This document shows, piece after piece, positions 6,419 to 21,667 of a stretch of DNA of 21,667 nt. The position numbers and the translations under genes were made by a program. Position 1 is the first letter of the stretch. Each line of letters opens with the position of its first letter. The notes below the pieces were generated by a model that did not search any database, was not told where the DNA came from, and saw only the letters and a list, made by a program, of their open reading frames with translations. The DNA comes from a virus, in the IMG/VR virus record IMGVR_UViG_3300021376_000414, positions 1-21,667 of that record. The stretch is one strand, 5' to 3'.

Positions 6419-8821
6419 CTAGCTAAGGTTGCCGCCCAAGCCCAGTCCAGCTGCAAAGCTTTCAGCTAACACTTGTTGCTGACCACTTTCAACCTGCATC
6501 TGCACCTGACTGGTCAGCTGTTGCGATGCTTGAAACTCCAAACGGGCCTGTAGGCTTGGTTCACCCATACTGCGTTCGATACCGAGCGGCACCACCAGCG
6601 TCGAGGTTTCCAATCGGAGTTCAAAAAGCACATTAAAGATTGGCTTATACGGTAAGGCCAGCTCTAGCGGTTGTAGGCTGATTGCGAACTGTTCAGTCTG
6701 ATTATTGGGCAGCGACGCCAGCAACGCATTGACAGCAGCCTGATCATTGACATTTACAGGTTCGTCCAGCTGCACACTGTTAGCGATAACAGGGTTGGCC
6801 ACCACAGTCTCCTCTGGTGCCACCGGCAACGCTGTTGTTCCTGGTGCTACCGGTGTCCATAGCGGACCATTGACATCCCCGTCTGCCACGCCCCAGTAGA
6901 GCGCATCCGTGGAAACCAAACAGCTGTTGGCGTCAAATGTCCAGCAACTTCCATTGGTACGGTATGTGGCCGTGATGCCGTTGCTTTGCAGATGAAATGC
7001 CCCAAGCGGTTCAGTTGGCAGCACACCTAAAGCGGTTACAAGTTGCAGTCCTAAGCGGTGTCCTATCAATAGACGATTTTGCTCCTCCGCATAATCGCTT
7101 GCGACTTCACTTCCATTTCCCGCAATAACATTCCCTTCAGCGTCAACTATGTCATCGGGGAGGAAGGGGACTGAAAATTGACCGCTACGACTTGTTGTGT
7201 CTGATGGTGTATCGCCTATTTTCATGCTGGCAGTACCTTGAATTACGATGTTGCCAGCCTGCACACCAGCGTTGGCAAGGTAATCGGGTATTGGTTTTGC
7301 ATCCGGTGTCGATGTTGTTTGGAGATTCACCTCGTAATTTTCATACACAAGTGCAAAAAACTGATCAAGTAACACGTAAAGATTTGCGCTAGAACTGCGA
7401 AATGCTGGCTTTAGGGCGGCTGCTGATAAAGCCTGCTGACCCATTTGAGTTGATCCATAAGCAACAAATGTCTGCTTGATTTCTTTTGTCCACTGATCGC
7501 CGTAGAGATACGAAGTTGTCACCATGTTTGATACTCCCTGCCCCGAGGGAATGGTCTCAAATTTGGAATAGTCACCAATGCCTATACGGCCCAAAGCTTC
7601 GGCATAAGATATTGTTTCAACAGATTCTTGATAACTCTTGCGAAACGTGGGCAGAGTGGGCATCACATAGATTGTACCGGCAGACGAAAGGATTGGATGA
7701 CTGGACACGTCATTACCTGTTAGTGCATCCTTCGCGCTTTCTATTTCTTGTTCTAGCTGCTCCTGCTCCTGCTCGCTTAGCGGAGGCGCTGGTATTTCTT
7801 CATACACATAATTCTCTGTCTTAGTTGTTGTGACAGATTGATAGGCAATGCCATCATCCAGGCCAGCATCAATGTAATCCTGAATGATTTGACTATTGAC
7901 TTTAACTAAGGCTGTGTCGGTGGTGATAACTTGTTGCATTGTACGGCTATCAGGTTCCGCTGTCTCCGTAGAGGTAGTTGCTGTTTCAGTAATGTCATAC
8001 GTTCGCGTGTTACCATTTTTCAGCGTAACCTTAAGGCCTGTAGTTATGCTGCCGCTACTGTTAGTCCAAGATTGGGTCCATGTGCCATATGAGCCCGACA
8101 CTACGTGTACTCCTGCTGAATGTTGAAGTGGCGTCAATGTTTGCGCATCCCCTGTTGCTACAGGCGTTTCACTGTAATCAACGCCCCCTTCATTCGAAGA
8201 AATATCGACCACTTGATCAAAATTAACTACGGGGCCATCAAGTGACAGCTCCTCGTATGAAAACGCCTGCAATATATTTTCGGCATTTACATAGCCAAAA
8301 CGAGAAACACTTGCCAATATATCCGACATTGTAGTAACATAATCATCAGCGGTTAGAGAGGACAGCTGCTTTTTTAAGTCCCATTGACCAATGACTCCAA
8401 CATCGATACCAATGCGATCCGCCATCACCTCAAAAGCATCGTGCAAATCAAGTACAGGTGCATCTTTATAGGTGCGGCCATATAGCGCATCAACCAATGT
8501 GCTATTGATAACCCCGCCGCCTTGATCTTTCATATATGCCAATTCATCGGCTATTGAGACACTTGTTTCATTTTTTAGTGGGTTTGCAAAGGATTTTGTG
8601 ATGCGAAAAACGCTACGCGGGAAACGGACGGCTTGCTGGCCATCAGGTGTAATGTATGCCAACAACACCTGCTCGCCAACCGCCGGAGTGATCAAGCCAG
8701 CGATCACCAGCTCTCCTGTTGTAAAGATCAGCCCTTGACCTTGCACATGGTCATCACGCACGCTGCCAGAAATAATTGGCCCCAAGTTGCAGATGACCTC
8801 GGCACGAACATCAAGCACCAT
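6419..8821 (-). CDS. large tail protein, putative baseplate hub/tail tip, 800 aa
   Basis: The true start is probably the ATG at 8821 (MVLDVRAEVICNLGPIISGS), which overlaps the preceding stop and has GGAG eight bases upstream. An 11-residue extension to 8854 is less likely. The first 220 residues (ISGSVRDDHVQGQGLIFTTG, then DLHDAFEVMADRIGIDVGVI, then LASVSRFGYVNAENILQAFS) resemble a hub-type protein: a beta domain followed by a segment describing a short period in which the protein is tested against the tape tip. The middle has threonine-rich strands and a glutamate/glutamine coiled coil (LSEQEQEQLEQEIESAKDAL). The C-terminus is helical. The gene is noticeably less GC-rich (about 7000-8600) than its neighbours. 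The hub role is inferred from size and position. Confidence 0.65.
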   Translation of the reverse strand: MVLDVRAEVICNLGPIISGSVRDDHVQGQGLIFTTGELVIAGLITPAVGEQVLLAYITPDGQQAVRFPRSVFRITKSFANPLKNETSVSIADELAYMKDQGGGVINSTLVDALYGRTYKDAPVLDLHDAFEVMADRIGIDVGVIGQWDLKKQLSSLTADDYVTTMSDILASVSRFGYVNAENILQAFSYEELSLDGPVVNFDQVVDISSNEGGVDYSETPVATGDAQTLTPLQHSAGVHVVSGSYGTWTQSWTNSSGSITTGLKVTLKNGNTRTYDITETATTSTETAEPDSRTMQQVITTDTALVKVNSQIIQDYIDAGLDDGIAYQSVTTTKTENYVYEEIPAPPLSEQEQEQLEQEIESAKDALTGNDVSSHPILSSAGTIYVMPTLPTFRKSYQESVETISYAEALGRIGIGDYSKFETIPSGQGVSNMVTTSYLYGDQWTKEIKQTFVAYGSTQMGQQALSAAALKPAFRSSSANLYVLLDQFFALVYENYEVNLQTTSTPDAKPIPDYLANAGVQAGNIVIQGTASMKIGDTPSDTTSRSGQFSVPFLPDDIVDAEGNVIAGNGSEVASDYAEEQNRLLIGHRLGLQLVTALGVLPTEPLGAFHLQSNGITATYRTNGSCWTFDANSCLVSTDALYWGVADGDVNGPLWTPVAPGTTALPVAPEETVVANPVIANSVQLDEPVNVNDQAAVNALLASLPNNQTEQFAISLQPLELALPYKPIFNVLFELRLETSTLVVPLGIERSMGEPSLQARLEFQASQQLTSQVQMQVESGQQQVLAESFAAGLGLGGNLS

Positions 8822-9570
8822 CAGACTTGCTCCACGGTAATGCTGACACTCCAAACGTTGGTCTTTAAGCCATTAACTATCCGGGTTTCAACCGAAGCCG
8901 TCGGCGCGCTAGTGGGCCACCAATCACCAACTACCGGGGCGCTTTGCACCGTGCTCGCCACCCAGTTGCGCAGGGTATAGAAGGCCGCCTCATTAGCCAC
9001 GGTTCCACTGATCTGACGCACGGCTGAGGCGCGCAGCGGCCCTTGAACGTAGGCAAACCCCCCGGCGGTGCGCTCCAGTGTCGGCAGATCGTCCAACGAC
9101 TCCATCGGTTCCGTCAACGTGATTGTCACCCCGCCCAAGGTCACGGTGCCGAGGTTGGGCAGCATGGCATCGTCAGCGGCAGCGCTTTTCTCCAGCGCTT
9201 TCTTGGCGATGCTTAAAGCTTGGTTGGCATCCACCAAGGTGGCGCTTACCTGCACATAGGAGCCGAGCTGATCAAAGCTGGGGGCATCGGTGAACCAACA
9301 AGCCACGCCGGAGGCGGTGAGGCCATTGGCACTGGCGCTCAACGCCACGGTGCTGCCAACACTGTTGCTGGCAATCGAATCAGCATCTCCCTGGCGTGCC
9401 GCCAGCCAGGTTTCAAAGATGCTTTTGAACTGCCCCAACTGCGTGCTGTCCAGCAGCCCGTTGATGGTCCAGCTCCGTGCCGCCAGACCCAGCTGCACAT
9501 CATCGGCCTGATAGCCAAAAGGCTGCGCCGTGAGGTTCTTAATTTGCAGGCCGTTGATGGTGACGCTCAT
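8821..9570 (-). CDS. tail protein with two similar halves, 249 aa
   Basis: The family is not recognised by name, but the location immediately after the tape measure suggests a distal tail or tail-tip adaptor. The protein seems to contain two copies of one fold. The first half has RSWTINGLLDSTQLGQFKSI, then FETWLAARQGD, later VQVSATLVDA. The second half has SAVRQISGTVANEAAFYTLR, then NWVASTVQSAP, later VWSVSITVEQV. Each shows a strand, a helix starting at an NG/AN turn, a Trp-containing helix end and a closing strand. The ATG follows the tape measure stop without a gap, and its own stop overlaps the next ATG (TGATG). Confidence 0.72.
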   Translation of the reverse strand: MSVTINGLQIKNLTAQPFGYQADDVQLGLAARSWTINGLLDSTQLGQFKSIFETWLAARQGDADSIASNSVGSTVALSASANGLTASGVACWFTDAPSFDQLGSYVQVSATLVDANQALSIAKKALEKSAAADDAMLPNLGTVTLGGVTITLTEPMESLDDLPTLERTAGGFAYVQGPLRASAVRQISGTVANEAAFYTLRNWVASTVQSAPVVGDWWPTSAPTASVETRIVNGLKTNVWSVSITVEQV

Positions 9571-13222: not shown

Positions 13223-13594
13223 TCAGGAGCGCAGCAGCTCAGCCTGGCCCAACTGTTTGGCGTAGAGGTTGGAGAAGCGGCCGTCGTAGCCCAGGGCAAG
13301 CGAGAGCTGCTCGCGCCAGTAGCCCTGCTGGGTAGTGATGCCGGCCAACTTGGCGGTGGGGTTGCCGGGCTGCCACTCCAACACGTCTGCGCGAATCAGG
13401 CCCAGATCCTCTGAGGCCTTGGCTTCAAAGGCGGTCTCCAGGGCGTTGAGCTTGGTGATGCTGGTTTGGCTGGTGGTGATCGAAGCGGCAGAGGCTTCGC
13501 CCATCAGCACGTCCAGGTGATCAAGGGCGATGGTGGTGGCTGGGATGGCGAGGTGACGGCGGATGGCCTCGCGGTCAGTGGAAAGCCAGGGCAT
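13223..13594 (-). CDS. putative head-tail connector protein, 123 aa
   Basis: The N-terminus reads MPWLSTDREAIRRHLAIPATTIAL, followed by a helical middle (SITKLNALETAFEAKA) and a C-terminal part with YWREQLSLALGYDG. The helical make-up and the location between the minor head protein and the tail tube suit a head-tail connector (adaptor), but no motif proves it. The ATG at 13594 has a good ribosome-binding site (AAGG, seven bases upstream). The gene is GC-rich again, unlike the two preceding genes. It begins 30 bases after the candidate immunity gene. Confidence 0.6.
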   Translation of the reverse strand: MPWLSTDREAIRRHLAIPATTIALDHLDVLMGEASAASITTSQTSITKLNALETAFEAKASEDLGLIRADVLEWQPGNPTAKLAGITTQQGYWREQLSLALGYDGRFSNLYAKQLGQAELLRS

Positions 13595-13624: not shown

Positions 13625-13828
13625 TTATACAGGCCAAATGTCATTCACCGCATCAAAATCTTCATCTGTTTCAGCTAGAACCAAAAAAACTTCCACCAAC
13701 TCTGTGATTTTATTCCGTTCAGTTGTGTCGGCTTGATCGTACAAATATTTGAGCTGCCTGAATCGAGCCGCCGAAAACTTTTCAGCACTGGCGACCCTGA
13801 GAGCCTCTTCCAATAGCGGCGTGTTCAT
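13625..13828 (-). CDS. small acidic protein, candidate immunity protein for the MuF toxin
   Basis: This 67-aa protein is acidic and largely helical. It begins MNTPLLEEALRVASAEKFSA and ends ETDEDFDAVNDIWPV. I know of no family match. Its ATG (13828) overlaps the MuF-peptidase stop as ATGA, so the two are translationally coupled. It shares the AT-rich composition of the MuF C-terminal region and not that of the GC-rich connector gene after it. Small size, acidity, position immediately after a putative toxin domain and shared composition are the usual marks of an immunity gene in polymorphic toxin loci. The function is inferred from context only. Confidence 0.72.
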   Translation of the reverse strand: MNTPLLEEALRVASAEKFSAARFRQLKYLYDQADTTERNKITELVEVFLVLAETDEDFDAVNDIWPV

Positions 13829-16068
13829 GATTCTAAATACTCATAAAGGCTGCGTCTGATTCGATCATAAAGCTTAGGTCGCATTTTTTTAAGGGTTGCA
13901 GGCTGGGTAACAAAAGCGACAAATCCTTCTGCAAAGGCTTCTAGGTCATTTGTACCACTGTACGTGGTGAGTTTTTTGTCCGCACGGAGTCTGATGCCAA
14001 GCTTATCATCTTTAGTCTCATCCATAAATTGAACGACATGCCCGATTTCATGAATAAGCGTTGACATAACGCTTCTAGCGGCCCGCTCGTCAGCATGGCT
14101 GAAAGACCACACCTCCTCTCCGTTTTCTATTTTCTGCAAGACCTTAGAGACATGATCCGCTAAGTCTTTGGCAGAAAAGGCCTGCCCTTTTAACAGGTCT
14201 CCTCTTTTGACAGAAACAAAATTGTAGTTCTTGAAAGCCTGGCCATTGGCATCTGCCGGCGGCAGCATGAATCGCTTTATGTATTTGTCAATTTGAGATT
14301 CATAGTGCTCGTGGATTTTTTCGCCTGCTATTTTGTCCCTTAATTTAGCGCCGATAAAGTCCGCACCCTGCCCCGTTCGTTGTCGAAGAACTGCAGCCTT
14401 AAGCTGGTCGCTTTTCATAAACACCTCCCATCTTTCAGCTGGTGTCATCTTTCCTGTCAAGTGCACCGCTGTACCGCTCTTCTCCACAAACTGAAGCATT
14501 GCCCTGGCGTTTTTACCTGCTTCACCTGGCTGCGCCATCAGTGACTCAAATGCTTTAGTTATGTCAGCAGTTTTTAGGCCAGCCTGTGCAGTGGCATTGG
14601 CGACAGAGAAGTTAGCTTGAATAATTGCTTCAACGCTCTTGCCTAGTTTTGGTGCAAAATCTTTGGCCTTTTCAATCAGGGCAGCCTGCTCTTTGATTTT
14701 GGCTGCCTGCTCTAGCGAATCAATTTGACGCTGCAAATACCCTCTTCGCTCTTTTAGTTTTTTGTAGGGCTGCATAGCTTTTATTTGCATGTCATCCATG
14801 AGCTGCTCAAGCTCGTCAAGACGCGCTTCAAGTTTCGGCTCTCTAAATCCCTGTTTTGCAAACAAATTACTTATACGCAACATTTCGCTTTCATATTCCG
14901 CAAACTGCTTATTAGTCTTTTTAAGATTGTCATATTTCCATGGCGATTGGGCGTCCAGCTTTTTAAGCCTTTGATTAACAAGATCCAGCTGCTCAGCAGG
15001 ACTGAGCGCATTTTTTTTATTAAGTCTTTTGTTTGTTGCAGCACTTTCAACAGGCGGCGGGGTCCAGAGCGGTTTCGGTGCTGCCTTTAGCCCCAGCGCT
15101 TTCTCAAACGGGCTCGGCTTGTCGATTGGTTCTTTCCCCGCTGCCTTTAATTCCGCCAGCACCTCCGCCCGTGCCTTGGCCTCCTCCTGCAGATCCACCA
15201 GCCCTACTTCAAGCCAACGTGGATCCCAGGGCGACACTGTGCATCTGCAGTTTGGGTGCGCTGGTATCACCACCTCCCGCAGCAGATACACCCGCCCGTG
15301 ACGAGGGGCGCAATAGCCACATGTGCGGCTACTGCCCACCGCCTGCCATTGCACCTGCTGAATGCCCTCCGCCTCATACCGAATCTTGGTGCCCTCCAGC
15401 ATCGCGGCAGCCATCTCCGTGCGAGCAATCACCTGGGCGCGGCTGCTGGTCAATGCCAACGACTGCTTCAGGGTGCCGCTTAGCTGCCGCCAGCTGTCAC
15501 CCTGGGCTAGGTGAAACTCCACTGCGCCGATGATCCGCCCGCGCAGGTCCACCTCCACCAGGCGGTTCAGTGAGGCAAACGCCTGACTGCCCGTGGCGCC
15601 TGCGGCGTAACCGCTTAAGGCGTTCTGCCGTTGCGCTGCTGCCAGCAATGCCGAGGGGTTTTGCTGCGCCATCGCCGGGGTCAAGATCCCCTCCGGGTTG
15701 GCGGTAGCCGATGCAAACAACTCCGCCACCTGCTCGGTGCTTTGCGCCGTTGCCTGTTGCTGCACGCTGTTGAGCTGCGCCAAGCCCCAAAGGCCACCAG
15801 CCTGCCGCCCATCCAGCAGGGCCTTGGCAACGGTCAACTGCAACTCCGGCGGTAGGCGCAGCGTTTGCAGCTCTTGGCCTAACTGCTCCCTCAGGATCAA
15901 CAACCGCCGCAGCGGAAAGACATCGCCACCCTCCTGCGCTCGCTTGTAGGCCGTTTCAATGCGACCCTCTAAGGCGCGATAGGCGCCAGTAAGGCCCTCT
16001 ACGATGTCGCGCTCATAGGGGCCCAACAGGGCATCACTAAGCCGCTCCCAGCTTTCGGCTGGATCCAT
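13825..16068 (-). CDS. MuF-type minor head protein with C-terminal zinc-metallopeptidase (putative toxin) domain
   Basis: This 747-aa protein is much longer than plain MuF/SPP1 gp7 head morphogenesis proteins. Residues about 150-283 form the MuF domain: IARTEMAAAMLEGTK (214-228), then the paired cysteines TCGYCAPRHGRVYLL (249-263) and IPAHPNCRCTVSPW (268-281). Residues 345-600 are lysine- and glutamate-rich, with long coiled-coil stretches (365-470). The C-terminal domain carries LIHEIGHVVQ (671-680), an HExxH zinc site with His673, Glu674 and His677. LEAFAEGFVAF (709-719) follows, offering Glu710 or Glu714 as a third ligand. DNA encoding residues after about 345 is clearly AT-richer than the GC-rich first third, suggesting separate acquisition. 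MuF proteins with variable C-terminal effector domains are known phage polymorphic toxins. A capsid-processing protease is the alternative reading. It overlaps the next small gene by ATGA. Confidence 0.85.
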   Translation of the reverse strand: MDPAESWERLSDALLGPYERDIVEGLTGAYRALEGRIETAYKRAQEGGDVFPLRRLLILREQLGQELQTLRLPPELQLTVAKALLDGRQAGGLWGLAQLNSVQQQATAQSTEQVAELFASATANPEGILTPAMAQQNPSALLAAAQRQNALSGYAAGATGSQAFASLNRLVEVDLRGRIIGAVEFHLAQGDSWRQLSGTLKQSLALTSSRAQVIARTEMAAAMLEGTKIRYEAEGIQQVQWQAVGSSRTCGYCAPRHGRVYLLREVVIPAHPNCRCTVSPWDPRWLEVGLVDLQEEAKARAEVLAELKAAGKEPIDKPSPFEKALGLKAAPKPLWTPPPVESAATNKRLNKKNALSPAEQLDLVNQRLKKLDAQSPWKYDNLKKTNKQFAEYESEMLRISNLFAKQGFREPKLEARLDELEQLMDDMQIKAMQPYKKLKERRGYLQRQIDSLEQAAKIKEQAALIEKAKDFAPKLGKSVEAIIQANFSVANATAQAGLKTADITKAFESLMAQPGEAGKNARAMLQFVEKSGTAVHLTGKMTPAERWEVFMKSDQLKAAVLRQRTGQGADFIGAKLRDKIAGEKIHEHYESQIDKYIKRFMLPPADANGQAFKNYNFVSVKRGDLLKGQAFSAKDLADHVSKVLQKIENGEEVWSFSHADERAARSVMSTLIHEIGHVVQFMDETKDDKLGIRLRADKKLTTYSGTNDLEAFAEGFVAFVTQPATLKKMRPKLYDRIRRSLYEYLES

Positions 16069-17543
16069 CAGCTACCCGGCAGGATGTTGGCCGGGGGCGT
16101 CATTACACCGGCTTCCAGCAGTAGCCGGTCGCGCTCCACCTGTGCCTCCAGCTGGCTCTGCTGCAGGCCATCTACATCCAGCACCTCCTGCTCTACGTCA
16201 AAGTCGATCGGCAGCACCCCACCGCGCTGCAGCAGATCCAAGGTGGTGGACTTGCTGAGGTAACCGCCATCGGCAAGCGCCTTGATCTGCGCCACCTGCT
16301 GCGAATCCAACTTGCTCTCCAGCGCCTGGGCGGCGATCTGCAGGTGACCCATCGGCTCTTCGTTTGTGTAGCTGCACCACAGGAATTGGATCTGCTCAAA
16401 CAGGCTGGCCTTTTGCATCCCTGCCAGGGCTAAGCCGCTTTGCACCTGCCCGGCCTGCAGCCGCGCCTGGGTGGCTGTGACGGCCTCCTGGCCGCTCATG
16501 AACGCCAGCGTCTCGTTATTGATCAGCTTCTCAATGTGCAGCAGGTGCTCCTGCTGCTGTTGCAGGCTGCTGCCCGAGGGCTCAGCAAAGCGAAAATCCC
16601 CATCGACAGGCACATCGACCACGCTGTTGGGGCCAATCACCAAGGGCGGTGGGGTTTGGCCGTCCATCAGCAGCGCGCCACGGCGCACCGGCACCGGCAG
16701 GGCGCAACGGTGCAGGAGCTCGTTAAGGTCTGAACGGCTGCGGTAATGCTGCAGGGTCAGCAGCGCCAGCTCACGGAACGGCGGCAGGCCATGCCCCCAA
16801 CGCTGCGGCTGCGGGCTATACCAAACCAACGGCACGTCTTCGATGCTGTTGAAGCCCTCCTCCACCAGCTGCAGCTTTTGGGTGGCACCCAGTTGCCTGT
16901 TGACCTGCCAGACCTGATAGGCGCCTGGCGTGAGCACACGGAAGAATGGCTCCATGCTGAAGCCAAAGCTGCCGGACTCCACCTCGCGCCACTCCAGCAC
17001 GGTGGCTTGCACTAAGCGCTCCTGCCCTGCGATGTATTCGGTGCGCCAGTTGAGGATGTTGCGGCGCTCCAGCAGCACTAAGTAGGGGTTGCGGCCAAGG
17101 GCAATACGATCGGCCTCAGACAGCACCGACACCTGCTGGGGCATCTCCACCATCACGGCACAGCCGCCATCCCGCATGGCCAGGCTGTCGGCCATGGCTA
17201 AGAAGGCGGTGAGGTTGTTGCCCAGCTGATCAACGTCATCGAGCTGTTGCTCAATCGAGAGGGGCAGATCGGTAAGGGTGAATTGCGACAGGATGCCACT
17301 CATCGCTTCGATGGCCTTACGAAAGCTCGGCACATATGTGGCGCGTGCCAGGCGCGAGCGATAGGCACGGTCGGGCTCTTTGGTTTCCTGCGACAAGTAG
17401 GTGGCTTCCCTGCCGCGCAGGCCTAGCCAGCAGTCAACCAACAGCTGGAGATCGGGCTCTACATCACGCAGCACCGGATGCTTCCAGGTCGGCAGGTTTG
17501 GCGCATCAAAGAGATCGCCGTCAAGGGCAGGCCTGCCGTCCAT
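16068..17543 (-). CDS. portal protein (DUF4055-like)
   Basis: This 491-aa protein fits the phage portal, the dodecameric ring at the capsid vertex that docks the terminase. The N-terminal part (YLSQETKEPDRAYRSRLARA, FRKAIEAMSGILSQFTL) and the GGCAVMVEMP and NILNWRTEYI segments follow the pattern I associate with DUF4055 portal-like proteins. The position directly after the terminase and directly before MuF supports this. The ATG at 17543 is preceded by GGAAGAGAAACACATGG. The frame is open to a TTG at 17594, but no ATG or GTG lies between, and that extension would overlap the sigma-like stop. The C-terminus is helical and leucine/glutamine-rich. The stop overlaps the MuF ATG as TGATG. Confidence 0.82.
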   Translation of the reverse strand: MDGRPALDGDLFDAPNLPTWKHPVLRDVEPDLQLLVDCWLGLRGREATYLSQETKEPDRAYRSRLARATYVPSFRKAIEAMSGILSQFTLTDLPLSIEQQLDDVDQLGNNLTAFLAMADSLAMRDGGCAVMVEMPQQVSVLSEADRIALGRNPYLVLLERRNILNWRTEYIAGQERLVQATVLEWREVESGSFGFSMEPFFRVLTPGAYQVWQVNRQLGATQKLQLVEEGFNSIEDVPLVWYSPQPQRWGHGLPPFRELALLTLQHYRSRSDLNELLHRCALPVPVRRGALLMDGQTPPPLVIGPNSVVDVPVDGDFRFAEPSGSSLQQQQEHLLHIEKLINNETLAFMSGQEAVTATQARLQAGQVQSGLALAGMQKASLFEQIQFLWCSYTNEEPMGHLQIAAQALESKLDSQQVAQIKALADGGYLSKSTTLDLLQRGGVLPIDFDVEQEVLDVDGLQQSQLEAQVERDRLLLEAGVMTPPANILPGS

Positions 17544-17584
17544 CCATGTGTTTCTCTTCCGTGCTCTGAAATTGCCGCCAGTGC

Positions 17585-18214
17585 TTACAACCAACCAGCA
17601 TCCATCTCGTCCTCGCTGTTGTGCAGGTCAAAGTTCCCGAGCTCGTGCCCCATACCAGCGGTGGCACGCAGGTCAAGCTTGAGCTGATCGGTGCTAACGC
17701 CGAGCTTTTGACAGACCTGCTCCATGGTTTCGCCGCGTTCCAACAGGCGCCGCGCTTGCATACCTCGCTGACGCACGGTGCCTGGGGCTTTAAGCCAGAA
17801 GTTGTGGTCGCGTATGTAATGGCGCCACTCGCCAAGGATGAAAGGCAGGGCGATGGTGCTGAACTTAAAGCCGGTGCTGGGGTCGTAGCGGCGAACGGCC
17901 TTGAGCAAGCCAATCAAGCCCAGAGCAAAAAGCTCATCAATTTCAATGCAGCGGTATTTGTGAAACTGCTGCTGGATGATTGCTTTCAGCAGCGGGATGT
18001 GCTTCTGCACCATGCGCTCCTCTGCGCGCCGCTTACGCGGGCAGGTTTCCTTGTACAGGAGTGTGACCGGCCGATCAGTGGATGCTTTGCTGGGTTTGAG
18101 CACTGCCGTGGGCAGAGCAGCTGGCTGCCACGGCGCATCGGGCAGGGTGTCAAAGGCAAAGCTGAGCTGACCCTCCGGGCACTTGCGCTGGCGAGCCCTA
18201 GCCATCACGATCAC
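17585..18214 (-). CDS. phage sigma factor-like protein, regions 2 and 3 only
   Basis: This 209-aa protein resembles a sigma-70 family factor of the alternative (SigB/SigF/SigG-like) type. Region 2 runs from about residue 62 to 140: a helix (MVQKHIPLLKAIIQQQF), then DELFALGLIGLLKAVRRYDP (94-112), then GFKFSTIALPFILGEWRHYIRD (115-136), which is the core-binding and -10 recognition segment. A region 3-like helical part follows (145-185: RQRGMQARRLLERGETMEQV, then LGVSTDQL). The protein ends about 25 residues later in an acidic tail (NSEDEMDAGWL), so there is no room for a normal region 4, the -35-binding helix-turn-helix. I used the GTG at 18214, seven bases after a GGGGG run; ATG at 18205 is the alternative. 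It probably directs RNA polymerase to phage late promoters, perhaps with a partner protein. Confidence 0.82.
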   Translation of the reverse strand: MIVMARARQRKCPEGQLSFAFDTLPDAPWQPAALPTAVLKPSKASTDRPVTLLYKETCPRKRRAEERMVQKHIPLLKAIIQQQFHKYRCIEIDELFALGLIGLLKAVRRYDPSTGFKFSTIALPFILGEWRHYIRDHNFWLKAPGTVRQRGMQARRLLERGETMEQVCQKLGVSTDQLKLDLRATAGMGHELGNFDLHNSEDEMDAGWL

Positions 18215-20721: not shown

Positions 20722-20902
20722 GGATGACGATGGTGGCGGCGTTGACACGCGCTTGGAGGCGTTCAATGCGCCAGCGCTCAGCGGTGAGAGCTTGAGAGGG
20801 GTCTGATGAGAAGGTGCCGTTAACGGTAAGGAAGGCACCGGTGAGGGAGACCAAATGGCAGGGCTGCATACCATGAGGCGGGTTATCAGATAGAGCGGAC
20901 AT
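20711..20902 (-). CDS. small hypothetical protein, 63 aa
   Basis: I do not recognise this family. The ATG at 20902 shares one base with the methyltransferase stop (TGATG), and the gene's end overlaps the GTG start of the RusA gene by 11 bases, so it is embedded in a translationally coupled chain. That placement is the main support. A TTG one codon upstream (20905) is an alternative start. The N-terminal half is short and hydrophobic to neutral (HLVSLTGAFLTVNGTF). The C-terminal half looks helical and charged (ALTAERWRIERLQARVNAA). No cysteine cluster, signal peptide or clear DNA-binding motif is visible. Confidence 0.6.
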   Translation of the reverse strand: MSALSDNPPHGMQPCHLVSLTGAFLTVNGTFSSDPSQALTAERWRIERLQARVNAATIVIRAA

Positions 20903-21667
20903 CAAAGAAATGTCCCCTGCGTATGCTCAGGCACCGCAATCCGTCCGCGTGCAATCTCCAAATACTCAGCCTCACGCTCGATGCCGATAAAACGGAAGCC
21001 TTCCAGCACCGCTGCCTTACCCGTGCTACCGCTACCCATGTACGGATCCAGCACCACACCGCCCGGTGGCGTTACTAGCCGGCACAGGTAGCGCATCAAT
21101 TTGGTGGGCTTGACCGTGGGATGCAGGTTGTCAGCACCACGGTCGACTTTGCTTGCTTTGGCGCAGTAGAAGAATCTGGCGGCGGAGCCGGTGTCGCCGT
21201 AGCGCATCCCATTGCTGTCGTGACCGTTGATACCAAACATGCTTGAGTGATTACCGTGCTTCACTTGTCCCGCTTCCCGTTTTGCCCCTGCTCCGTGCGG
21301 GCTCGGAAACAGCCCCACCACCTCATCGCTGCCGTCGTGGATCAGGTTCGCGGGCCAGCGACCAGCGGGCTGTTTGTATTCGCCCCCCCGTTTGTGCTTG
21401 CCATAGCACACCGCTTGGTATTCGTCTGGCGTGTCTCTGTAAAAGCCGCCGTTCAGGTTGTCCTCCGTCCCCACCCTGCACCCGTCCACATTGATCGCCC
21501 CCGTGCCGTGCCGCAGCACGTTCTCGGCCACGGTCCCCTCAAGCGGCTTGCGCGCCACCGTGATCGGCTCTAGGGCGGGCTTTAGCGCCGTGCCCCAACC
21601 TTCCCACTGCTGCGCTTCAGGCGTGGCGGGGGCGGTGATGACGCCAATCTGATCAGGATTGGTAAAT
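20902..21667 (-). CDS. DNA adenine/cytosine-N4 methyltransferase, 5' end outside window
   Basis: This is the C-terminal 254 or so residues of a site-specific DNA methyltransferase of the N6_N4_Mtase type. The reading frame stays open to the window edge, so the start lies beyond 21667. A GTG at 21558 is internal, because the upstream residues (QQWEGWGTALKPALEPIT) match the conserved middle of phage methylases. Visible motifs are HPTVKP (motif X region) and DPYMGSGSTG (motif I, SAM binding). Motif I close to the C-terminus indicates the beta-type order, with the catalytic DPPY tetrad expected in the missing N-terminal part. It probably modifies phage DNA to escape host restriction, or is an orphan methylase. 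The stop overlaps the next gene's ATG by one base (TGATG). Confidence 0.9.
   Translation of the reverse strand, partial: FTNPDQIGVITAPATPEAQQWEGWGTALKPALEPITVARKPLEGTVAENVLRHGTGAINVDGCRVGTEDNLNGGFYRDTPDEYQAVCYGKHKRGGEYKQPAGRWPANLIHDGSDEVVGLFPSPHGAGAKREAGQVKHGNHSSMFGINGHDSNGMRYGDTGSAARFFYCAKASKVDRGADNLHPTVKPTKLMRYLCRLVTPPGGVVLDPYMGSGSTGKAAVLEGFRFIGIEREAEYLEIARGRIAVPEHTQGTFL

What the first reader, a model, noticed from the sequence alone, without database searches (positions are those of the whole stretch)
13625..16068. MuF head protein fused to a zinc-metallopeptidase domain with an ATGA-coupled candidate immunity gene
Seen: a 747-aa MuF-type protein with an intact HExxH site (HEIGH, residues 673-677) and a downstream LEAFAEGF segment that can supply the third zinc ligand. 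A 67-aa acidic protein starts inside its stop codon. Both the C-terminal half and the small gene are AT-richer than the flanks: 26 of 60 bases are G or C at 13861-13920, against 42 of 60 at 15541-15600 in the MuF core. Known: MuF domains on temperate phages can carry polymorphic toxin domains followed by immunity genes. Inferred: the module was acquired as a toxin-immunity cassette and may be delivered with the phage particle into the next host. This is the strongest candidate here for an undescribed system, because I cannot name the peptidase or the immunity family.
Basis: partly seen in the sequence, partly recalled or inferred. Interest (0 to 1): 0.88.

Follow-up and report, generated by a model that had tools for sequence, protein, structure and literature searches.

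The report
Phage capsid peptidase with partner gene
A phage head protein carries a swappable protein-cutting domain that travels with the same tiny neighbouring gene, which fits a toxin that phages carry in their particles together with its antidote; the kind is known, but this peptidase-antidote pair and its spread into cyanobacterial phages look new.

Summary
In detail: a 747-aa MuF head protein with an intact HEIGH site, and a 67-aa acidic ORF overlapping its stop by ATGA, both AT-rich beside their flanks.

Comparative genomics strongly supports a mobile effector-partner cassette. In phages sharing the MuF core (55-100% identity), one junction carries nothing, three different zincins, or two kinds of other tail. 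Between flanks about 97% identical, zincin extension plus small gene are present or absent as one unit. The small gene follows 97 of 99 surveyed zincin loci, 0 of 12 short-MuF relatives and 12 of 12 strong matches of a later search. It tracks the zincin, hardly the MuF core. One deletion (three identical contigs) removed the catalytic part and left the small gene intact.

The peptidase is M34-like (lethal factor/PPEP fold). The partner is a confident four-helix bundle without a PDB match.

Best reading: a MuF polymorphic-toxin cassette, a capsid-borne effector peptidase with its cognate inhibitor. Toxicity, injection and inhibition are inferred. MuF toxins, some with metallopeptidases, are published, so this is not a new system. 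The pairing, its partner family and its presence in P-HS2, a Prochlorococcus phage treated as lytic, appear new.

The parts
13825..16068 (-). MuF head protein with C-terminal M34-like zinc peptidase, 747 aa
15235..15519 (-). Phage_Mu_F domain PF04233 (residues 184-278)
   Evidence: E=6.9e-13; PF04233 in 40 of 41 representative full-length proteins, the window's included
13828..15060 (-). exchangeable C-terminal extension, from about residue 337 (junction after ...PKPLWTPP)
   Evidence: alternative C-termini at this junction in relatives; DNA break points in near-identical phages
14674..15021 (-). helical linker insert (about residues 350-465), absent from L006/L007 and present in L014
   Evidence: by eye; weak PF13355 match E=0.0036, below cut-off
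13828..14619 (-). M34-like zinc peptidase domain (residues 484-747)
   Evidence: AF2 pLDDT 90.7; VIA-align Z 12.1 to lethal factor 4dv8, 9.9 to PPEP-3; profile search E=6e-7
14038..14052 (-). HEIGH motif (residues 673-677)
   Evidence: H, E, G, H invariant in 46 homologues
13921..13944 (-). LEAFAEGF segment, candidate third zinc ligand (E710 or E714, both invariant)
   Evidence: ligand role inferred
13625..13828 (-). 67-aa acidic four-helix partner protein, ATGA-coupled; candidate immunity protein/inhibitor
   Evidence: AF2 pLDDT 95.9; present after 97 of 99 zincin loci; travels with the zincin
13223..13594 (-). 123-aa downstream gene (function unassigned), right flank of the cassette
   Evidence: its homologue lies directly after MuF in short-MuF relatives
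16068..17594 (-). portal protein, upstream of MuF
   Evidence: PHROG 145 E=2.4e-81

Best explanation
It is a MuF polymorphic-toxin-type cassette. The N-terminal half of the protein is an ordinary MuF minor head protein. The C-terminal extension is an effector, an M34-like zinc peptidase, riding on that head component. The ATGA-coupled 67-aa four-helix protein is its cognate inhibitor (immunity protein), made in step with it so that the cell building the particles is not damaged. Proposed sequence: late in infection both are made; the inhibitor holds the peptidase inactive; MuF with its peptidase is built into the head at the portal; on the next infection the peptidase enters with or ahead of the DNA, away from the inhibitor, and cuts a host protein, to harm a competitor or to ease takeover. 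Shown here: architecture, conserved active site, gain and loss of the two genes as one unit, exchange of C-termini, co-inheritance of partner and peptidase. Inferred: proteolysis, toxicity, packaging, injection, inhibition, target.
For: One junction carries different C-termini in phages of one group: short; zincin A (window, L006, L007); zincin B (L121); zincin C (L134); other tails that match a MuF protein family, PHROG 16619 (L123, L136, L139). Cassette limits in near-identical genomes: L006 7014-8110 (1097 nt, extension plus small gene) replaced by 5 nt in L011 and L013, flanks 95-98% identical; L121 6017-7131 versus 10 nt in L118, flanks 95-97%. Small gene: 97 of 99 zincin loci (redundant; the viral part is drawn from the best 80 of 333 matches); 44 of 45 representatives below 90% identity, of which 37 overlap the MuF stop (longest ORF taken); 12 of 12 strong matches in a later order-level search with the profile fixed (11 if L164 is the genome of L114); 0 of 12 short-MuF relatives with the next gene visible; 0 of 1024 non-adjacent ORFs. 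Co-inheritance: partial Mantel small-zincin given MuF 0.69 (41 pairs) and 0.81 (26 cyanophage-like, my label), small-MuF given zincin 0.12 and 0.16; of 15 pairs with MuF parts at least 70% but zincins under 50% identical, 14 have small proteins under 50% too. One deletion state (three contigs, identical there) has lost the HExxH part but keeps an intact small ORF. Partner net negative in 34 of 41, zincin net positive in 38 of 41. Papers report toxicity and neighbouring inhibitors for other MuF toxins: Apk2/IapK (PMC12226406, passages) and Bxa (PMC11699363, passages).
Against: No activity, toxicity or interaction was tested; no complex could be predicted. Co-occurrence cannot tell an inhibitor from a chaperone. 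The partner family is recognisable across zincins only about 20-25% identical, more conserved than many immunity proteins (general knowledge). L121 and L134 have zincins 25% identical but partners 59% identical, so pairing is not strictly exclusive. The small residual link of partner to MuF was reached by only 3 of 1000 permutations, so it is weak but not nil. Three stand-alone 174-180-aa zincins in bacterial genomes have no such partner, nor has L162, which looks MuF-like by eye. In L068 the neighbouring ORF is only 37 aa; in L103 the partner lies 560 nt downstream. In the deletion contigs the zincin remnant is no more decayed than the small gene (6 of 43 versus 12 of 67 nonsynonymous codons), so the deletion looks recent and selection to keep an orphan partner is not shown.
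Confidence: 0.72

Rival explanations
1. The small protein is a dedicated chaperone or packaging adaptor that folds the peptidase and keeps it in place during head assembly, not an immunity protein.
For: It is present with nearly every zincin surveyed and follows zincin sequence. It is small, mostly acidic and helical and remains recognisable across very divergent zincins, as an adaptor might. Co-inheritance is equally expected.
Against: The deletion state keeps the partner after losing the peptidase core, though recently. Two other MuF toxins have adjacent small proteins reported to block the enzyme (PMC12226406, PMC11699363; passages).
Confidence: 0.15
2. The peptidase works on the phage's own proteins: head maturation or self-release of the C-terminal part before or after packaging.
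For: Zincins of polyvalent proteins have been proposed to self-process (PMC5512222, section 8). It is fused to a head protein.
Against: Close relatives with 95-98% identical flanks lack it altogether, so it is dispensable for assembly there. The Vibrio and Pseudoalteromonas phages with the same domain have a separate gene annotated as protease. A linked partner that comes and goes with it is not expected.
Confidence: 0.08
3. A decorative or decaying insertion without current function.
For: The cassette is AT-rich and patchy, and one lineage has lost the catalytic core.
Against: Catalytic residues are invariant in 46 homologues, which were collected partly by that motif. Both genes are open in almost all loci.
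Confidence: 0.02

Closest known systems
MuF polymorphic toxins (Jamet et al. 2017, PMC5576092)
   Same: MuF N-terminus beside the portal gene, variable C-terminus, small downstream ORF; 20% of 191 predicted MuF toxins carried a metallopeptidase; 89.4% of toxin-type versus 25.5% of short muf genes were followed by a small ORF.
   Different: No cognate immunity family for a peptidase is named in the passages I saw (supplement not open to me). [quoted passage not shown] here the pair is also in P-HS2, treated as lytic in PMC7852597.
Apk2/IapK and Bxa MuF toxins (PMC12226406, PMC11699363)
   Same: Head-gene position, MuF fusion, adjacent small inhibitor genes (passages).
   Different: Their C-termini are a (p)ppApp synthetase and an ADP-ribosyltransferase, not a peptidase; each also has an enzymatic immunity protein, while here only the 67-aa ORF lies between MuF and the 123-aa gene.
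M34/ATLF-like peptidases (lethal factor, PPEP) and Tox-ALF-type domains of polymorphic toxins (PMC3482391)
   Same: Fold by structure comparison and profile match over the HExxH-to-C-terminus part.
   Different: About 14-19% identity in the structural alignments; the window protein is below Pfam's cut-off for PF07737; PMC3482391 lists delivery by PVC/T2SS and Imm-SuFu for Tox-ALF (passages), here MuF and a four-helix partner.
Zincin domains of polyvalent phage/plasmid proteins (PMC5512222)
   Same: Packaged phage proteins with HExxH domains, proposed to self-process or act as effectors.
   Different: Those are multidomain proteins; a linked cognate small gene is not mentioned in the section seen.

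Membership tests
MuF polymorphic toxins | N-terminal MuF domain encoded next to the portal gene | tested here: met
   PF04233 E=6.9e-13; portal ORF overlaps the MuF start; PF04233 in 40 of 41 representatives
MuF polymorphic toxins | Conserved N-terminus with exchanged C-terminal domains | tested here: met
   short, three zincin types and other tails at one junction
MuF polymorphic toxins | Small downstream ORF linked to the toxin domain and absent from short MuF | tested here: met
   97 of 99 zincin loci, 0 of 12 short relatives, 12 of 12 later strong matches
MuF polymorphic toxins | Carried by temperate phages | tested here: inconclusive
   large serine recombinase in 5 of 8 contigs of the window's group, none in the 8 other records of that call; none of PF00589, PF07508, PF00239, PF02899 in Prochlorococcus phage MED4-184, though one gene is annotated excisionase
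MuF polymorphic toxins | C-terminal domain toxic, neutralised by the neighbour | not testable with these tools
   needs expression
MuF polymorphic toxins | Toxin domain shared with other polymorphic-toxin families | tested here: inconclusive
   no clear non-MuF toxin carrier recognised among 19 matches in 394 genomes of one order, full-length domains not annotated; three stand-alone zincins found
M34/ATLF peptidases | HExxH zinc site with downstream glutamate ligand | tested here: met
   H673, E674, H677 and E710, E714 invariant; ligand role inferred
M34/ATLF peptidases | Lethal-factor/PPEP fold | tested here: met
   Z 12.1, 153 residues, rmsd 2.9 (4dv8); Z 9.9 PPEP-3; profile E=6e-7. Foldseek alone is weaker: best E 0.03, probability 0.97-1 in the top rows, TM-score by query length only 0.25-0.44 in the PPEP and lethal-factor rows
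M34/ATLF peptidases | Above Pfam PF07737 curated cut-off | tested here: not met
   no PF07737 match for the window protein at E 0.1; 10 of 41 homologues match at E 0.001. Hence called M34-like, not a member
Polyvalent proteins | Protein with several unrelated enzymatic domains | tested here: not met
   only MuF and one peptidase domain recognised

The most novel reading that the evidence does not exclude
Head-borne MuF effectors with cognate inhibitors are not only weapons of lysogens. Lytic cyanophages such as P-HS2 use an M34-like peptidase carried in the head for takeover of the next cell or against co-infecting phages, and the small gene, which can outlive the peptidase, acts as phage-to-phage immunity in a mixed infection.
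Probability: 0.22. Interest if true: 0.82.

Novelty: new variant of a known kind. Interest (0 to 1): 0.62.

Why it matters
Whether MuF toxins are really delivered by phage particles, and what for, appears still open (PMC11699363 calls their biological role unknown, passages). This family offers a natural series, with near-identical phages with and without the cassette and with swapped C-termini, and a cultured carrier, P-HS2 on Prochlorococcus MED4, in which virion content, delivery and inhibition can be tested. It also names a partner family (within PHROG 36872 and 18304, both of unknown function) that could be annotated widely.

Tried and rejected
Head-maturation protease: rejected as an essential role, because relatives with 95-98% identical flanks lack it. 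Small gene as head completion or connector protein: rejected, absent from 12 of 12 short-MuF relatives with the next gene visible. Defence-system component: no PADLOC match for the window's two proteins at E 1; one E=0.019 match for a homologous partner, not followed. Small protein fold in PDB: best E 1.2, absence only. Own promoter for the small gene: one promoter-like site (9 of 12) does lie just upstream, at 13892-13864 (-), but the region has 2 such sites on both strands against 1.3 (sd 1.0) in shuffles, so this is no signal either way. No phage relative of the 67-aa protein by tblastn at E 1, although the profile finds the family. Identity of the other tails: L123 weakly resembles ADP-ribosyltransferases (HopU1 E=0.031, a PAAR-repeat protein E=0.63, two unrelated chains just below); L136 gave nothing in PDB; both and L139 match PHROG 16619. 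By eye I read all three as ADP-ribosyltransferase-like; that reading is not established, and Pfam gave no such match. dN/dS of the partner and zincin comparisons with L026 was saturated at synonymous sites. Tyrosine integrase PF00589: 0 of 12 and 0 of 10 records. A search of the class of L101's genome gave 3 of 369 genomes, one being that genome itself, the other two distant and without the partner.

Counts to read with care. One search found 333 viral relatives and kept the best 80; the 99 zincin loci are 77 of these, 16, three named phages, the window, L121 and L134. They are redundant (L062/L100 and L088/L101 are the same contigs). L033-L035 were left out because the HExxH part is missing. 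The small-gene profile was trained for three rounds on the neighbours themselves, so the fair tests are the 1024-ORF control (one strand) and the later order-level search. In that search L162 and L163 had no partner; L179-L181 had one (E 2.8e-8, 1.3e-6, 0.008). The cophylogeny used 41 representatives, some with partial N-termini (L014, L042); its 15-pair list was drawn from the 26 cyanophage-like ones. Of 30 loci classed for the MuF core, L011, L122, L140 and L010 were dropped from the counts because their contigs end too early; L143 was set aside beforehand as distant. Papers: PMC5576092 (passages and section 7), PMC5512222 (passages and section 8), PMC3482391, PMC12226406, PMC11699363 and PMC7852597 (passages only); no supplements. 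The view that the pairing is unpublished rests on seven listings and these passages; Jamet's supplementary tables might list some of these proteins.
Full report
What is there. The window is a 21,667-base IMG/VR virus contig. On the minus strand it carries terminase, portal, MuF and tail genes. The portal is followed by a 747-aa MuF protein (16068..13825) whose stop overlaps a 67-aa ORF (13828..13625) by ATGA. PF04233 covers residues 184-278. HEIGH is at residues 673-677. The extension and the small gene are 45% GC, against 62-64% in portal, MuF core and the downstream gene.

Which peptidase. Pfam gives only sub-threshold matches for the window protein (M90 E=0.011, Zincin_1 E=0.069). An alignment of 46 homologues gives a profile that finds lethal-factor chains (E=6e-7) and, weakly, Pro-Pro endopeptidases (best E=0.045). 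The AlphaFold2 model of residues 484-747 has mean pLDDT 90.7. Foldseek lists PPEP and lethal factor first, with probability 0.97-1 in the top rows but E only 0.03 and low TM-scores. VIA-align gives Z 12.1 (4dv8, 153 residues, rmsd 2.9) and 9.9 (PPEP-3). Z of this size can be unspecific for helical models, but sequence profile and fold agree. I call it M34-like and do not file it in PF07737, whose cut-off the window protein does not meet; 10 of 41 homologues match PF07737 at E 0.001. Invariant residues include both histidines, the catalytic glutamate and E710 and E714, one of which should be the third ligand.

The partner. The 67-aa protein is predicted as a four-helix bundle with pLDDT 95.9 and has no PDB match. 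Relatives fall in PHROG 36872 (MED4 cyanophages) and PHROG 18304 (Vibrio phage), both of unknown function; the window's own copy matches PHROG 36872 only weakly (E=0.0032). A profile built from the family finds a homologous ORF after 97 of 99 zincin loci. One miss (L040) ends 2 bases after the stop; the other (L068) ends 172 bases after it and shows a 37-aa ORF that resembles the family by eye. The viral loci come from the best 80 of 333 found. Among 45 representatives below 90% identity, 44 have the partner, and in 37 of these it overlaps the MuF stop, 27 times by four bases, if the longest ORF is taken; among 1024 non-adjacent ORFs of 45-110 aa none matches. Because the profile was trained on these neighbours, I tested it on a later search that used only the zincin (394 genomes of the order of L101's genome, 19 matches). 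All 12 strong matches besides that genome have the partner (11 if L164 is the same genome as L114). Three stand-alone zincins of 174-180 aa do not; three distant long ORFs do, one only at E=0.008.

Exchange at one junction. Searching with the MuF core brought 31 loci. L143 is a distant match (31% over 116 residues) and was set aside; 30 were classed (using L011 and L013 for the contigs of L131 and L138). After residue about 337 the relatives end (short), carry zincin A, B or C, or carry other tails. All 8 zincin loci whose stop is visible have the small gene, as has the window. Of 12 short relatives with the next gene visible, none has it; the homologue of the 123-aa gene follows at once. The three loci with other tails (L123, L136, L139) have no homologue of it; L123 and L136 have a different 55-aa ORF. 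Three contigs (L033-L035; the same as those of L141, L034 and L132) have lost the HExxH part but keep a C-terminal remnant and an intact small ORF; they are identical there, so they count as one event.

Break points. L006 and L011 are 97% identical up to L006 position 7013 and again from 8111 (only 41 bases can be compared there; L013 adds 5.8 kb at 97%). The 1097 bases between, the extension and the small gene up to the last base of its stop, correspond to 5 bases in L011 and L013. L121 against L118 (1115 versus 10 bases), L123 against L119 (849 versus 49) and L136 against L137 (964 versus 8) break at or near the same place. The cassette, not the peptidase alone, is the unit gained and lost.

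Co-inheritance. Over 41 representative pairs, partner distances follow zincin distances (partial Mantel 0.69 given MuF; 0 of 1000 permutations reach it) and only slightly MuF (0.12 given zincin; 3 of 1000). In 26 pairs that I labelled cyanophage-like the values are 0.81 and 0.16; in 15 Mu-like pairs 0.51 and 0.16. Of 15 pairs among the 26 with similar MuF parts (70% or more) and different zincins (under 50%), 14 also have partners under 50% identical; L121/L134 is the exception, at 59%. Between the window and L033 the small gene is less diverged at synonymous sites (dS 0.45) than the MuF core (dS 1.14), as expected if the cassette moved more recently than the cores split.

Who carries it. Annotated carriers found are the Prochlorococcus phages MED4-184, MED4-117 and P-HS2, a Mu-like Vibrio phage and Pseudoalteromonas phage HS6. 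The 16 bacterial-genome loci are, by their titles, Gammaproteobacteria but for one Ponticaulis (classes from my own knowledge). In the window's group 5 of 8 contigs encode a large serine recombinase, so that group is probably temperate. MED4-184 shows none of four recombinase/integrase families, and P-HS2, with an identical zincin, is treated as lytic in PMC7852597 (passages), although MED4-184 has a gene annotated as excisionase. The window's host is not established. Cyanobacteria are likely from MuF relatives in cyanophage PSS2 and two cyanobacterial plasmids, but the terminase matches phages of many hosts.

Reading. The features are those of MuF polymorphic toxins (PMC5576092), for which toxicity and small inhibitors have been reported with other C-termini (Apk2/IapK; Bxa). 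I therefore read the pair as a capsid-borne effector peptidase with its cognate inhibitor, at 0.72. The chaperone reading (0.15) cannot be excluded by genomics. Maturation or self-processing (0.08) is unlikely, since close relatives do without the domain. Whether the peptidase kills a competitor, helps takeover or acts against other phages is open. The small gene sits among the head genes and is coupled to MuF; one promoter-like site upstream of it is not above chance. If it has no promoter of its own, it protects the producing cell and not a resting lysogen; that is inference.

Novelty. The kind is published. The M34-like peptidase paired with this four-helix partner family, the series of C-termini in one phage group with exact break points, and the presence in a cultured cyanophage treated as lytic were not found in the papers and listings seen. 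Jamet's supplementary tables were not open to me and may list some of these proteins.

Noticed in passing
window 17585-18214 (-): ORF with a sigma-70 region 2 domain (E=1.5e-9) and PHROG sigma-factor matches, between terminase and portal genes; by eye a similar ORF stands before the portal in L033.
   Followed up: no
window 6419-8854 (-): 811-aa ORF without any Pfam or PHROG match at E 0.1, with a 45-47% GC stretch (about 7000-8750) in a 57% GC contig.
   Followed up: no
L135, L136, L137 (MuF ORFs): The MuF domain is interrupted just before the HNCRC motif by a long insert that looks like an intein (weak PT-HINT match E=0.096 in L136).
   Followed up: partly
L124, L134, L135, L136, downstream of the 123-aa gene: A 168-176-aa ORF with paired Cys motifs (RCDCGT...SCGCW) follows the 123-aa gene in some relatives only, perhaps a homing element.
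   Followed up: no
L123 and L136, after the MuF stop: Other C-termini have their own different 55-aa neighbours without Pfam match, candidate partners of further MuF effectors.
   Followed up: no
L176, L177, L178: Stand-alone 174-180-aa zincins with HE(I/V)GHH and CEDFAE motifs in bacterial genomes, without the small partner.
   Followed up: partly
L103 8423-8984: The partner gene starts 560 bases after the MuF-zincin stop instead of overlapping it.
   Followed up: no
window 20902-21558 (-): N6_N4_Mtase-type DNA methylase ORF (E=3.9e-20) upstream of the terminase genes.
   Followed up: no
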